A DNA stretch of 64,000 nucleotides, taken from NCBI RefSeq assembly GCF_003344865.1, contig NZ_CP031165.1:3291910-3355909 (forward strand), in the 5' to 3' direction. Both the position numbers and the translations under genes were made by a program. This document shows, piece by piece, positions 57,071 through 61,367 of the stretch; position 1 is the first letter of the stretch; the number at the start of each line of letters is the position of its first letter. This DNA is from Euzebya pacifica (GTDB taxonomy: Bacteria; Actinomycetota; Nitriliruptoria; Euzebyales; Euzebyaceae). The notes beneath the pieces are model-generated. The model made no database searches. It worked only from the letters and a program-made list of their open reading frames with translations, and was not told the origin of the DNA.

Positions 57071-57766
57071 ATGTTTCGACGTACTGTCACGTCCGTTCTC
57101 GGTGCTCAGTACGAGCTCCAGCATCGAGACAGGTTGCAGTTGGCCAGTTACAGTCACTGTTTCTACACGTGGGACGGCGTGACCGTTCCACTGCGGTCGA
57201 CCGACCACATGACTGCATGGTTCACCGCAACCACAGTGCTGGGTGCCACATTCGACGAGGAATACGACCTCGGGGACGGAACCCTCTACTTGGGTTCCTA
57301 CGCACATGTCGCATCCGACAACGGGGTCAACTACAGCAACCCGAGCGTGGCGCTGTGGTCGGGTGCCGACCGCGCCGTGTGGACGGAAACAGAGGTTCGC
57401 GACACGGCCTGGTTGGTGGGACTCTTCCAGCACCTGGAGCCGAAGATCATCGGGGAGACGGCGGTGGTCTCTGGCGCGGACCTCTCGATGGCCGAGGTCA
57501 CCGACGAAGAGGTCCTCACCACGATCCTGTCTGGGCCGTGGCCAGGGAGCGACCGGATCCTGCGACTGTTCGACCTCGAGGCGTGGGCACCGACCTCACG
57601 CCGAGGAATGGACGCCGAAGCGGGGGAACTGTTCCGCCGCGGCGACGAGGCCGTCCTCAGGGGCGTCAACGCGATGGTGCAGGTGCGGGAAGCGGACTTC
57701 GGCAGCACAGGAAGCGTCGACTTCCTTCGCCGGTTCGGAGGACTTGACCGTGCGAGGGTCAGGTGA
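57071..57766 (+). CDS. Unknown 231-aa protein, first gene of mau-like operon
   Basis: ATG at 57071 after GGGGGTGAGG. A soluble protein without signal peptide, with the segments LQLASYSHCFYTWDGVTVP, TLYLGSYAHVASDNGVNYS and LFRRGDEAVLRGVNAMVQVR. It is rich in aromatic residues and has a single cysteine. No family recognised. GTGA overlap with the MauD-like gene shows tight coupling, so it probably acts with the exported 12-Cys protein, perhaps as a cytoplasmic escort or modifying factor. Codon use is less GC-extreme than in neighbours, hinting at transfer. Confidence 0.75.
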   Translation: MFRRTVTSVLGAQYELQHRDRLQLASYSHCFYTWDGVTVPLRSTDHMTAWFTATTVLGATFDEEYDLGDGTLYLGSYAHVASDNGVNYSNPSVALWSGADRAVWTETEVRDTAWLVGLFQHLEPKIIGETAVVSGADLSMAEVTDEEVLTTILSGPWPGSDRILRLFDLEAWAPTSRRGMDAEAGELFRRGDEAVLRGVNAMVQVREADFGSTGSVDFLRRFGGLDRARVR

Positions 57767-58272
57767 GCCCGGAAACGTCCTTCGCAGTCCTCACCTGGAT
57801 GGCCATTGCGGTGCTGACCGCAGGCCTCGTGGGGTGCCTGCGTGCCCTCTCGGCACTGCGTGCGTCCGTCGAGGACCGCATGGGCACTCCCCGACGGCTG
57901 GCTGTCGGTGACACCATCCGCTTGCCAGCGGGACTTCTGTCCACTCGAACAGAGCGCCGCTGCGCCCTGCTGTTCGTGCGGGCGGGGTGCCGCAGCTGCG
58001 AGACCGCGCTCGAACGGCTGACACCCTGCATGGATGAGATGCCCGACGCCGAACTGCTGGTGCTCTGGCAGGGAGAACCCGATCCGCGCTGGCCGGGTGT
58101 CCCACAGGCCGCCGAGGCCTTCGAAGCGCTCAACGTCGGCGTCGTGCCGTTCTTCGCCCTGCTCGAGGGCAACCGGGTCATCGCCCGAGGCGGACTCGGC
58201 AGCCGTGAACTCCTCGACCGTGCCGTCGACGACCTGAAGGACCTGACCACACCAACGGAGGTATTCCAGTGA
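57763..58272 (+). CDS. MauD-like membrane-anchored thioredoxin-fold protein
   Basis: A 169-aa protein. One N-terminal membrane segment (FAVLTWMAIAVLTAGLVGCL) leads to a thioredoxin-like domain with CxxC in LLFVRAGCRSCETALERL and the fold-typical cis-Pro region NVGVVPFFALLEGNRVIARG. This topology and order match MauD, which with MauE is needed to form disulfides in the methylamine dehydrogenase small subunit. The CxxC (CRSC) is unlike DsbA CPHC or MauD CPxC. It overlaps both neighbours by four bases. Confidence 0.75.
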   Translation: MSPETSFAVLTWMAIAVLTAGLVGCLRALSALRASVEDRMGTPRRLAVGDTIRLPAGLLSTRTERRCALLFVRAGCRSCETALERLTPCMDEMPDAELLVLWQGEPDPRWPGVPQAAEAFEALNVGVVPFFALLEGNRVIARGGLGSRELLDRAVDDLKDLTTPTEVFQ

Positions 58273-58844
58273 CGACAACCACAGCACCTTCACCCACCAT
58301 TGACGACCTGCCGGAATGGGACGGGCGATGGAAAGGGCAGCCGACGGTACAGATGACTCGCCGCAGGTTCGCTTCCAACGCACTCGTTGCCGGTGCCATA
58401 GGTGTTGGGGTGAGTGTCCTCAACGCGCTGGGAGGCCGGGCGCCTGCCGCACTGGCCCAGACATGCACCACCACCGGGTTGACCTATCTCAACAACTGTG
58501 GCGGCAGCAACTACTCCACGACCTGTTCGGACGGATGTCCACGATCTCCCGGTACGGACAGCAGTTGGTTCTGTTCCACGACGTCGTTCCGGTCACGACA
58601 CCGTGCGTGCTCGGAACCCCGGTACGACCCGGGTTCCCAGCTCACCTACGGGTTCGCGATCAGGACCAACCAGTGCTACACGTCCACTGCCGACGGTTGG
58701 CTCTGGGAAGGGGTGGACAGCGGCGGCGACTGCGGGTGCGTCAACGTCAGGCAGTTCTCCTGCAACGACGGCTACTACCGGGTGGAGTTCCCCTACCTGG
58801 GAGCGTGGCACCCGTCGATCTGCCAGACGGCCCGATGCGTCTGA
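58269..58844 (+). CDS. Tat-exported small protein with 12 cysteines (MauA-like layout)
   Basis: A 191-aa protein. Residues 29-64 are a Tat-type signal (MTRRRFASNALVAGAIGVGV, cleaved near ALAQ). The mature 127 residues hold exactly 12 Cys (66, 77, 86, 90, 102, 114, 136, 155, 157, 165, 185, 190), including a CGC, and four Trp (100, 144, 146, 180). The methylamine dehydrogenase light chain MauA is also a Tat-exported small protein with 12 Cys, but Cys spacing differs and homology is not certain. Six disulfides formed by the neighbouring MauD/MauE-like pair are likely. No heavy chain MauB or MauG is nearby. A TTQ-like cofactor is speculation. GTG at 58269 has GGAGG upstream. Confidence 0.75.
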   Translation: MTTTTAPSPTIDDLPEWDGRWKGQPTVQMTRRRFASNALVAGAIGVGVSVLNALGGRAPAALAQTCTTTGLTYLNNCGGSNYSTTCSDGCPRSPGTDSSWFCSTTSFRSRHRACSEPRYDPGSQLTYGFAIRTNQCYTSTADGWLWEGVDSGGDCGCVNVRQFSCNDGYYRVEFPYLGAWHPSICQTARCV

Positions 58845-58920
58845 CCGGAACGACGTCAGCGGATCCCGACTCGCGCATGCAGACTGTCGACGTCGGGCCA
58901 GAGCGGGGCTGGTTGCCGAC

Positions 58921-59439
58921 ATGCTGTCGGTGATCGCAGGGGCCGTGACCGTCCTGCTGCTCATATCGGCGTGGACGTCCAGTCCCGTCCTCCCGATCGA
59001 TGACCACGTCCGCCATCGGCGGGCAGCGCTGGCCATCCGCAGCCTGGAGGCCACCTTGGCCCTGGTGCTCGCGGCGGCGCTCCACTTGGGCAGTACGGAT
59101 CTGTTGCGTCTGGCGAGCGGCGCCGTGGGACTGCTCTTCGTCGGTTACACCGCCCACCAGCTCAAGGGAGCACGGGCAGGGTCGATGCAGTCCTGCGGCT
59201 GCACACCGTTCGAGGAGATCCCCAGCTTCCGGACGGCCCTGAGGGCGGCATCGGTCGTCGGCATGGCGGCGGCCCTGTCCACGATGCCGCCGACGGCCGC
59301 CCCATCCTCCCTGGAGTGGCTCATGGCGCTGGTGTTCGGCACGGCCCTGCTGTTCTGGCCGACTGGGTTCGGGATGGCCGATCAGGTCGTCCGGCGACTG
59401 GAGGTCGAACACCGGTGGGACGTGGCGTCCCGTGGCTGA
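58921..59439 (+). CDS. MauE/DoxX-like membrane protein
   Basis: A 172-aa protein with four membrane segments (VIAGAVTVLLLISAW, LEATLALVLAAALHL, LLRLASGAVGLLFVGYTAHQL, LMALVFGTALLFWPTGFGM) and the motif MQSCGCTPFEE between segments three and four, like the CGC of MauE, which is thought to pass oxidising equivalents to MauD. A gap of 76 bases follows the 12-Cys gene. ATG at 58921 lacks a strong ribosome site. It should lie in the membrane and serve the exported client. Confidence 0.75.
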   Translation: MLSVIAGAVTVLLLISAWTSSPVLPIDDHVRHRRAALAIRSLEATLALVLAAALHLGSTDLLRLASGAVGLLFVGYTAHQLKGARAGSMQSCGCTPFEEIPSFRTALRAASVVGMAAALSTMPPTAAPSSLEWLMALVFGTALLFWPTGFGMADQVVRRLEVEHRWDVASRG

Positions 59440-60118
59440 CACCTACTGGTTCCTCGCCTTCGGGCTCCTGGGGGGCCTCTCTGTCTCGGGGGCGATCTGA
59501 AACCGCAACGCAGCCATGGTGCTGCTGCCACCGGTCGGTGGCCGACGACAACAACGGATGGTCCGGCAGGCGATCGTGGCCTTCGCCGCCGGCAGTGTCC
59601 TCGGCGGACTCGTCTCTGCGTCCGGCCTGTTGGTCGTCGCGGGGTTGTTCTCCGAGCTCTTGACGGAGGCCCGTGTGGTCGTCCTGGGGATCACAGTGAC
59701 TCTGGCTGTGGCCCTGCAGGCCGGCGTTGTGGGCGTGCGACTGCCGTCGCCCTCCCACATCATCCCGCAGACGACCTTCGGTCACGGGATGGTGTCCGGG
59801 ATGCTGCGGTTCGGGTTCGAGCTCGGCCTGGGCTTCCGGACCCAGATCCCCACGGTTGCCCCGTACGTACTCGCGGCTGTCGTCGTGCTCGGCGGCACCG
59901 TCCCGTCGGTGGCTGCCCTCGCGTTCGGCTGGGGGATCGGCCGTGCAGCCGCGTTCTCGGGCCGCGCAGGGCTCGTGGTCCCCGACGCGGAGGACAGCCG
60001 ACGAGAGGCCGTCCTCACCCGTTACGAGATGCGCATGGCGAGACTCGGGTCGACATCGGTGTGGGTCCTGCTCGTGGTCCTGCCGGTGTGGTGTGTCATG
60101 GTCCTCGTCACGGGGTGA
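59432..60118 (+). pseudogene. Multi-spanning membrane protein with in-frame TGA
   Basis: GTG at 59432, overlapping the MauE-like stop, opens ADTYWFLAFGLLGGLSVSGA, a membrane span, and meets TGA at 59498. The same frame goes on as NRNAAMVLLPPVGGRRQQRM and then a long membrane part (IVAFAAGSVLGGLVSASGLL, VLGITVTLAVALQAGVVGV, VAPYVLAAVVVLGGTVPSVA, VWVLLVVLPVWCVMVLV) to 60118. The simplest view is one 228-codon gene with a TGG or CGA changed to TGA; alternatively the second half starts anew at ATG 59516 (200 aa). Function unknown; operon membership suggests a role with the MauD/E-like proteins. Confidence 0.55.
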
Positions 60119-60233
60119 GGCTGTGTCGGTCCATCCCGGCGTCACACGGTCGCGTGGTGACTTCCCACAGGCCCACCCGAAGATTCTCCGTCACGGCACG
60201 ACACCCCCGGGCCTGTAGGTCCCGGAGATGCCC

Positions 60234-60722
60234 ATGACCACACCGCCTGCATGCGAGTCGTTCCTGCGCGACGAGTACCCACGCCTCGTGGGGTTCCTTC
60301 GCCTGCAGTTCGGCGTCGACGCCGAGGACATCGCCCAGGACGCCGTCGTCAAGCTCATCGACCGCTGGGACCGACTCGACACCGACCAGCCGCCCCGCGC
60401 GTGGCTGTACACCGTTGCGTTGCGGGACGGTTACCGGCTCGGCCGCCGACTGCGACGGCTCACCGGCGCCCTTCCGCTGCTGGCACCACAGTCCGACACC
60501 GCGGACGTGGCCGAGGCGGCCGCTGCGACGCTGGACACCCGTCGGGTCCTGGCTGCCCTTCCGGAACGCCAGCGGGCGGCCGTGGTCCTCCGCTACTACT
60601 GCGACCTGCCGGCTGCCGTGGCCGCGCAGGTCCTCGGGACGACCGACGAGGCCGTCCGGGCCCTGTGCCATCGCGCCGTCGTTGCGCTGCGCCGTACCGA
60701 TCTCGATCCCGTCGACCTGTAG
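60234..60722 (+). CDS. ECF-type RNA polymerase sigma factor
   Basis: A 162-aa sigma-70 family protein with region 2 (FLRDEYPRLVGFLRLQ, VDAEDIAQDAVVKLIDRW) and region 4 (LPERQRAAVVLRYYCDLP, AAQVLGTTDEAVRALCHRAV). ATG at 60234 is preferred to the one at 60228, because GGAG directly abuts the first but is six bases from the second. Nine bases separate its stop from a gene for a single-span membrane protein, the usual position of an anti-sigma factor. Confidence 0.88.
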   Translation: MTTPPACESFLRDEYPRLVGFLRLQFGVDAEDIAQDAVVKLIDRWDRLDTDQPPRAWLYTVALRDGYRLGRRLRRLTGALPLLAPQSDTADVAEAAAATLDTRRVLAALPERQRAAVVLRYYCDLPAAVAAQVLGTTDEAVRALCHRAVVALRRTDLDPVDL

Positions 60723-60731
60723 GAGGACCCT

Positions 60732-61367
60732 GTGGAAGCCGACATCCGCCACCGCCTGGAGCAGGCCGCCGGCACCCCGGCCGAACTGGACCTGCGGACG
60801 GTCCTGGCCGCCCGCGACCGTCGCCACCGGACCCGCTGGGCGACCGTCGCGTCCCTCGTCGTCGTCGTTGCCGTCACGGGCGTCGCGACAGGGCTGCGGA
60901 CCGCCGCCCCCGACCCGGCGGCCGTTGCCGACCTGCCAGCCGGTGTCGAGGTCGTCCATGACGGCCCCACACCGGACCTCACCCTCTCCCCGATCGTGGG
61001 CGACGGCGACCAGGAAGCCGCCGCGGCGGTGTGGCGGCAGTTCGGAATGGACGGGCAGCCGCCGGCCGTCCCGGACGGCCACGTGATCGGGTTCGTCCCG
61101 TTGTCGGCCGACTGCAGTGCCGCCGACATCGTCGGTGTCGAGGCCGTCCACACCCGACCGGTGACCTGGACGCTTGACGTGGCGGTCACGCCCGGCTGCG
61201 AACCCGTCGAGGACCCCCGACCCGCACCCGCTGTCCCGATGTCGGGAACCCGGACGCTGGTGGTCCTCGCGATGCCGTGGCCAGACGACCGGCCGGTCCC
61301 CGGCCCGATGGTACGCAGCGCCGATCAGCCGCGGCCGACCCCGTGGGCCAGGGCGGCACAGGACTGA
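60732..61367 (+). CDS. Putative membrane anti-sigma factor
   Basis: A 211-aa protein with a short cytoplasmic N-terminus (IRHRLEQAAGTPAELDLRTV), one membrane segment (WATVASLVVVVAVTGVATGL) and an outer domain with two cysteines. No zinc-binding HxxxCxxC of ZAS anti-sigma factors is present, so the assignment rests on topology and on the preceding sigma gene. GTG with AGGAGG upstream. Confidence 0.6.
   Translation: MEADIRHRLEQAAGTPAELDLRTVLAARDRRHRTRWATVASLVVVVAVTGVATGLRTAAPDPAAVADLPAGVEVVHDGPTPDLTLSPIVGDGDQEAAAAVWRQFGMDGQPPAVPDGHVIGFVPLSADCSAADIVGVEAVHTRPVTWTLDVAVTPGCEPVEDPRPAPAVPMSGTRTLVVLAMPWPDDRPVPGPMVRSADQPRPTPWARAAQD

What the first reader, a model, noticed from the sequence alone, without database searches (positions are those of the whole stretch)
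57071..60118. Candidate undescribed system: mau-like oxidative folding operon around a Tat-exported 12-cysteine protein, without methylamine dehydrogenase heavy chain
Four overlapping or nearly adjacent genes plus a fifth encode an unknown soluble protein, a MauD-like membrane thioredoxin with CRSC, a Tat-signal protein whose mature 127 residues hold exactly 12 Cys, a MauE-like four-span protein with a CGC motif, and another membrane protein. Known biology: MauE and MauD are needed to fold the disulfide-rich small subunit MauA (12 Cys, Tat-exported) of methylamine dehydrogenase. Here no MauB, MauG or amicyanin is visible. The operon therefore looks like a dedicated folding line for a different disulfide-rich exported product, possibly an enzyme subunit or a toxin-like protein.
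Basis: partly seen in the sequence, partly recalled or inferred. Interest (0 to 1): 0.85.

Follow-up and report, generated by a model that had tools for sequence, protein, structure and literature searches.

The report
MauF/E/D folding operon, orphan cysteine-rich client
A bacterium carries a small operon that reuses the disulfide-forming helpers of an amine-oxidising enzyme for a different, exported, cysteine-packed protein, and related genomes pair the same helpers with several unrelated cysteine-rich proteins, so they look like a general, client-swapping folding kit that has not been described.

Summary
Five co-directional ORFs (57071-60118) encode an orphan soluble protein (A), a MauD-like membrane thioredoxin with CRSC (B), a Tat-signal protein with 12 Cys in 128 mature residues (C), a MauE-like protein with CGC (D), and a membrane protein (E) that profile comparison makes a MauF homologue. 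So mauF, mauE and mauD homologues are present without mauB, mauG or a recognisable mauA. C and A have no relatives in any collection searched. E does: its family occurs in 68 of 396 sampled Actinomycetota genomes. In 30, including a second locus in the window's own genome, it belongs to a MauE/MauD/MauF/S operon with a Tat-exported 15-27-Cys domain. Of 39 other MauF-family loci read, 31 have a different Tat/Cys-rich gene on the same strand within 2.5 kb, against none in 162 kb of flanks. Two of those clients are MauA homologues, and only those two loci have a MauB-like heavy chain. MauF-MauE and MauE-MauD gene fusions occur. Best reading: a modular oxidative-folding set for swappable Tat-exported Cys-rich clients, with C as this genome's private client. 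C's role is unknown and nothing has been tested at the bench.

The parts
57071..57766 (+). Gene A: 231-aa soluble protein of unknown family, first gene of the operon; possible client-specific cytoplasmic partner
   Evidence: Sequence; no match in Pfam, NCBIfam, PHROGs, no homologue in 120 relatives, no relation to S or MauJ by hhalign
57763..58272 (+). Gene B: MauD-like thioredoxin with N-terminal membrane span and CRSC (57988-57999)
   Evidence: hhalign vs actinobacterial MauD family 95.9%, E 5.7e-9; vs proteobacterial MauD 85.6%, E 5.5e-6
58269..58844 (+). Gene C: Tat-signal protein, orphan client; mature part 128 aa with 12 Cys
   Evidence: Sequence; no relatives in genome contigs, viral contigs, plasmids, phages or 396 phylum genomes
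58269..58457 (+). Tat signal peptide of C (TRRRF at 58356-58370, hydrophobic stretch, AxA-type end)
   Evidence: Read from sequence
58921..59439 (+). Gene D: MauE-like membrane protein with CGC (59194-59202)
   Evidence: Pfam MauE E=8.7e-4 (below cut-off); hhalign vs MauE families 73.8% (actinobacterial) and 27.5% (proteobacterial)
59516..60118 (+). Gene E: MauF-family membrane protein
   Evidence: hhalign vs actinobacterial E family 99.8%, E 1.2e-27; that family vs Paracoccus/Indioceanicola MauF 98.1%, E 9.3e-14

Best explanation
The operon is a MauF/MauE/MauD-type oxidative-folding module with its own client. C is exported by the Tat pathway (inferred from its signal). At the outer face of the membrane the thioredoxin-like B (CRSC), recharged by the MauE-like D (CGC) with the MauF-like E as membrane partner, forms or proof-reads the disulfides of C (inferred from the mau system, from co-occurrence and from gene fusions; not shown). 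Shown here by computation: the homologies of B, D and E, the lack of a MADH heavy chain and MauG, and the general pairing of this module with diverse Tat/Cys-rich proteins. A may be a client-specific cytoplasmic helper, as S may be for the main client family (speculation). What folded C then does outside the cell is not known; a stable secreted or wall-associated protein is most likely, by analogy with clients that carry wall-binding repeats.
For: Homologies of B, D, E. A conserved operon MauE, MauD, MauF, S, CR in about 90 loci. The CR domain (Tat signal, 15-27 Cys) is in 30 of 396 phylum genomes, and all 30 also have the MauF family. Other MauF-family loci: 31 of 39 have a Tat/Cys-rich ORF on the same strand within 2.5 kb, 0 in 162 kb of flanks; L247 has a further one with a non-canonical signal. 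The clients fall into several families, mostly without detectable mutual similarity. MauF-MauE fusions in 7 loci and MauE-MauD fusions in 4. MauB-like genes occur only beside the two MauA-homologous clients, L214 and L244. Literature: decRiPPter saw mauE (and one mauD) with precursors of at least 8 Cys in Streptomyces, without other mau genes (PMC7794033).
Against: No experiment. C and A are orphans, so selection on them cannot be measured. Seven of 39 MauF-family loci had no Cys-rich neighbour found (two of them end near the gene). MauD and MauE biochemistry is itself poorly known; a reductase or isomerase role, or a role in cofactor formation, is possible. D's similarity to MauE is modest.
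Confidence: 0.7

Rival explanations
1. C is a very divergent MADH-type light chain (MauA) and the operon is a degenerate or partial amine dehydrogenase cluster whose heavy chain and MauG lie elsewhere in the genome.
For: 12 Cys and Tat signal as in MauA; MauF-, MauE-, MauD-like genes all present; true MauA/MauB-like clusters exist in the same order (L214: MauE, MauD, PF02975 MauA, MauF, MauB-like).
Against: C scores no better than its own shuffles against MauA and 0.1-0.7% by hhalign; no PF02975, PF06433 or PF03150 match in the genome; no MauB-like ORF in the window with a profile that does find L214 and L244.
Confidence: 0.08
2. The module serves maturation of a ribosomal natural product: C is a RiPP-like or bacteriocin-like precursor made active by disulfide formation.
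For: decRiPPter listed Streptomyces clusters with mauE/mauD and Cys-rich precursors as candidate RiPPs; C and A are private to one genome, as secreted antagonists often are.
Against: Tat export and a 128-residue mature protein are unusual for RiPPs; no RiPP enzyme, protease or dedicated exporter was recognised among the five genes; the main other clients are conserved over whole orders and several carry wall-binding repeats.
Confidence: 0.12
3. The membrane genes are general redox proteins (DoxX/thioredoxin) unrelated to C; the linkage in this genome is accidental.
For: MauE-like and thioredoxin proteins are common in Actinomycetota; D and B are divergent.
Against: 4-nt gene overlaps with C in the middle; the same triad beside Tat/Cys-rich genes in 31 of 39 loci plus the CR operons; gene fusions among the three.
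Confidence: 0.07

Closest known systems
mau operon of Paracoccus denitrificans (mauRFBEDACJGMN)
   Same: MauF, MauE and MauD homologues next to a Tat-exported disulfide-rich small protein
   Different: No MauB, MauG, MauJ or amicyanin; the client is not detectably MauA; the MauF-family proteins are about 200 aa rather than 277; the genes lie in Actinomycetota
decRiPPter Streptomyces candidate RiPP clusters with mauE/mauD (PMC7794033)
   Same: mauE (one with mauD) with a small protein of at least 8 Cys and no other mau genes
   Different: The passages read mention no MauF, no Tat-exported clients with wall-binding repeats and no operon conserved across classes; that paper proposes RiPP modification, here folding of exported proteins is proposed
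VKOR or DsbB with DsbA (membrane oxidase plus thioredoxin), from general knowledge
   Same: Division of labour between a membrane redox protein and an exported thioredoxin; fusions of the two parts exist in both (MauE-MauD fusions)
   Different: MauE/MauF are different membrane families and are tied to one co-encoded client rather than serving the whole envelope

Membership tests
Methylamine dehydrogenase (mau) system | MauB heavy chain (beta-propeller) | tested here: not met
   PF06433 0 of 30 genomes incl. own (control 701 bits on Paracoccus MauB). PF06433 misses the MauB-like gene of L214, so a widened profile was used: no hit in the window or in the own-genome loci held; a remote copy elsewhere in the genome is not fully excluded
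Methylamine dehydrogenase (mau) system | MauA light chain (PF02975) | tested here: not met
   No PF02975 match for C or in own genome; shuffle and hhalign tests negative
Methylamine dehydrogenase (mau) system | MauG for TTQ formation | tested here: not met
   PF03150 absent in own genome; 1 weak match in 30 CR-module genomes
MauD family | Membrane-anchored thioredoxin fold with CxxC, similar to MauD | tested here: met
   95.9% vs actinobacterial MauD family, which is 98.5% vs proteobacterial MauD; CRSC present. Not matched by TIGR02661 itself
MauE family (PF07291) | Sequence match over curated cut-off | tested here: inconclusive
   20 bits vs cut-off 27; hhalign 73.8% with the CGC motif aligned
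MauF family | Homology to MauF | tested here: met
   E vs its family 99.8%; family vs MauF 98.1%, E 9.3e-14 over 162 columns; E alone vs MauF 32%
CR family (Tat-exported Cys-rich domain of the conserved actinobacterial operon) | C shares the CR domain | tested here: not met
   hhalign 0.3-4%, score within shuffles
Disulfide-forming system | Client oxidised by the module | not testable with these tools
   Needs expression and a thiol assay

The most novel reading that the evidence does not exclude
MauF, MauE and MauD are the core of a general, undescribed export-folding system of Actinomycetota with interchangeable Tat-exported Cys-rich clients, of which methylamine dehydrogenase light chain is only one; new client families (including C) evolve or are acquired next to the module.
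Probability: 0.6. Interest if true: 0.82.

Novelty: new variant of a known kind. Interest (0 to 1): 0.72.

Why it matters
MauF, MauE and MauD have been viewed as private helpers of one enzyme and their biochemistry is unsettled. If they form a general oxidative-folding set with many clients, their function can be tested with small soluble clients free of the TTQ cofactor, and how a Tat-exported protein with 10 to 27 Cys acquires its disulfides becomes an approachable question. The locus also gives a genomic handle (MauF-family neighbours) for finding unannotated, highly disulfide-bonded exported proteins, including wall-attached ones, in a phylum where most are hypothetical.

Tried and rejected
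Direct homologue search for C in viral contigs, genome contigs, plasmids, phages, 61 close relatives and 396 phylum genomes: nothing. Weak hits for A and D in other genomes (L017, L018, L020) look like broken or antisense frames. AlphaFold of C without an alignment: pLDDT 32, unusable. C as a divergent CR or MauA: an eye-made match of the last 30 residues was tempting, but shuffled copies of C score as well; rejected. CR as a MauA homologue: not by sequence (1.4-6%; no PDB match by profile); the CR model (pLDDT 91) has no significant Foldseek match, and a second alignment of Foldseek's candidates lists only aromatic amine dehydrogenase light chains, at Z 2.4-3.0: suggestive, not proof. A as MauJ or S: no. 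An apparent broken start of E (in-frame GTG 59434, then TGA 59500) was dropped, because the family starts at the ATG 59516. Similarities between client types that rested on the shared Tat signal were removed by repeating on mature parts.

Full report
Observation. The five ORFs exist as described. A (57071-57766), B (57763-58272) and C (58269-58844) overlap by 4 nt each; D starts at ATG 58921 and ends at 59439; E is 59516-60118; the last two gaps are 76 nt. C has a Tat signal (TRRRF, hydrophobic stretch, ending ..PAALA) and 12 Cys in 128 mature residues. It is the only ORF in the 64-kb window passing a Tat plus at least 8 Cys filter. The frame is supported by third-position G+C and by stops in the other frames.

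Single-gene searches. Pfam and NCBIfam leave A, B, C and E without a family at their cut-offs; D matches Pfam MauE at E=8.7e-4, under the cut-off. C has no relative in plasmids, phages, viral contigs, genome contigs of 84,980 species (a pattern-based search, close relatives only) or 396 phylum genomes. A has none in 120 genomes.

The way in was E. A search with E found about 200-aa homologues in nine other phylum genomes. Most of their neighbourhoods contain a MauE-like gene, a MauD-like gene, the E homologue, a small soluble protein S (about 168 aa) and a Tat-signal protein with a Cys-rich domain (CR) often followed by LGFP repeats or other modules. CR matches no Pfam or NCBIfam family. A profile of CR found 102 relatives in genome contigs, the best 80 nearly all titled as Actinomycetota lineages (Nitriliruptorales, Acidimicrobiia, Solirubrobacterales, Frankiales, Nakamurella and others), and 30 of 396 sampled phylum genomes, including a locus in the window's own genome at C1:1452216-1452557. 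Scanning about 90 such loci with family HMMs shows the five families together in most loci whose contig is long enough, in two main gene orders.

What the membrane genes are. hhalign of the window proteins against these families: B vs MauD family 95.9% (E 5.7e-9) and vs proteobacterial MauD 85.6%; D vs MauE 73.8%, vs proteobacterial MauE 27.5%; E vs E family 99.8% (E 1.2e-27), vs MauF 32%; the other pairings are at noise level. Family against family: E family vs MauF of Paracoccus and Indioceanicola 98.1% (E 9.3e-14, 162 columns), MauD vs MauD 98.5%, MauE vs MauE 97.2%. So the module holds homologues of mauF, mauE and mauD.

What is missing. PF06433 (MauB) and PF03150 (MauG) have no match in the own genome, and 0 and 1 (weak) matches in 30 CR-module genomes; PF02975 (MauA) has none in the own genome. 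Control: PF06433 scores 701 bits on Paracoccus MauB. Caution: PF06433 misses the MauB-like gene at L214; a profile that includes it finds MauB-like genes among the fetched loci only at L214/L196 and L244 and in the proteobacterial references, not in the window or in any CR locus.

Client swapping. A MauF-family profile (A3) found 68 of 396 phylum genomes and 31 of 66 class genomes; in its class only the window's genome has two copies. All 30 CR-positive genomes are among the 68. Thirty-nine further MauF-family loci were read. In 31 a Tat-signal ORF with at least 8 Cys lies on the same strand within 2.5 kb; in 162 kb of flanking sequence of the same loci there is none. L247 has one more with a non-canonical signal. 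The clients: a 10-Cys family of 21 members; a 12-Cys family of 4 with long C-terminal parts (one with a sub-threshold CWB2 wall-binding match); MauA homologues at L214 (PF02975, 102 bits) and L244 (97.3% vs MauA by hhalign); and single or paired types at L232, L238/L239 and L240. On mature parts most types show no mutual similarity; exceptions are the 10- and 12-Cys families (93%), L232 with L240 (78%) and L238/L239 with MauA (69%). The two MauA-homologous loci are the two with a MauB-like gene. MauF-MauE are fused in 7 loci and MauE-MauD in 4, which supports their acting together.

C and CR against MauA. C scores within its own shuffles against the CR and MauA profiles. CR against MauA is weak by sequence (1.4% to 6%), although the order of motifs CPPG..W..C..Y.I.DC is shared (by eye). 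The CR model from 64 sequences is confident (pLDDT 91.3); Foldseek finds no significant PDB match; realignment of Foldseek's candidates lists only aromatic amine dehydrogenase light chains, with Z at most 3.0 over about 70 residues. I take this as a hint that CR may be a light-chain-like fold. CR keeps Trp37 in all 64 sequences, but the residue before Cys87, where MauA has its second TTQ Trp in my alignment by eye, is Gln in all 64, so a TTQ of the MADH type is not expected there (inference).

Mechanism. Shown by computation: homology of B, D and E; the operon layout; the recurrent pairing; the fusions; the missing MADH parts. Inferred: Tat export of C; disulfide formation by B with D and E, from the reported need for MauE and MauD in methylamine metabolism (van der Palen et al. 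1997, as cited in PMC7794033). Speculative: A as a client-specific cytoplasmic partner; C's role outside the cell.

Prior work. decRiPPter (PMC7794033) noted three Streptomyces candidate families with mauE, one also with mauD, each with a precursor of at least 8 Cys and without other mau genes, and proposed RiPP modification. I found no paper on the MauF-containing operon or on the CR domain in the library searched; most subscription papers are not held there.

Verdict. The finding is real and larger than first seen. The window operon is a divergent, so far single-genome member of an actinobacterial MauF/E/D module with swappable Tat/Cys-rich clients. Its client C remains an orphan.

Noticed in passing
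own genome C1:1450566-1457814 (L150 2067-9315, - strand): Second, canonical MauE/MauD/MauF/S/CR operon in the same genome; its CR protein continues into LGFP-like and cell-wall-binding-like repeats, and a transposase-like ORF and an aldo-keto-reductase-like ORF sit between MauD and MauF.
   Followed up: partly
L214 2741-7030 and L244 2820-6462: Actinobacterial MADH-like clusters (MauE, MauD, MauA homologue, MauF, MauB-like heavy chain); L214 is from the same order as the window. The L214 heavy chain is missed by PF06433 but reaches 94.8% by hhalign.
   Followed up: partly
L216, L217, L220, L223, L229, L230, L235; L226, L231, L233, L241: Single-frame fusions MauF-MauE (seven) and MauE-MauD (four), the latter reminiscent of VKOR-thioredoxin fusions.
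   Followed up: partly
59434-59502: Short in-frame ORF (GTG, 22 codons, one hydrophobic stretch) overlapping the stop of D and ending just before E; may be chance.
   Followed up: no
60228-61367: Downstream ECF-type sigma factor gene (PF08281, PF04542) followed by a 211-aa ORF without a family match, possibly its anti-sigma factor.
   Followed up: no
L104, L107, L108, L113: In these Acidimicrobiia-like loci the operon is split into two divergent pieces (MauE+CR on one strand, MauD+MauF+S on the other).
   Followed up: no
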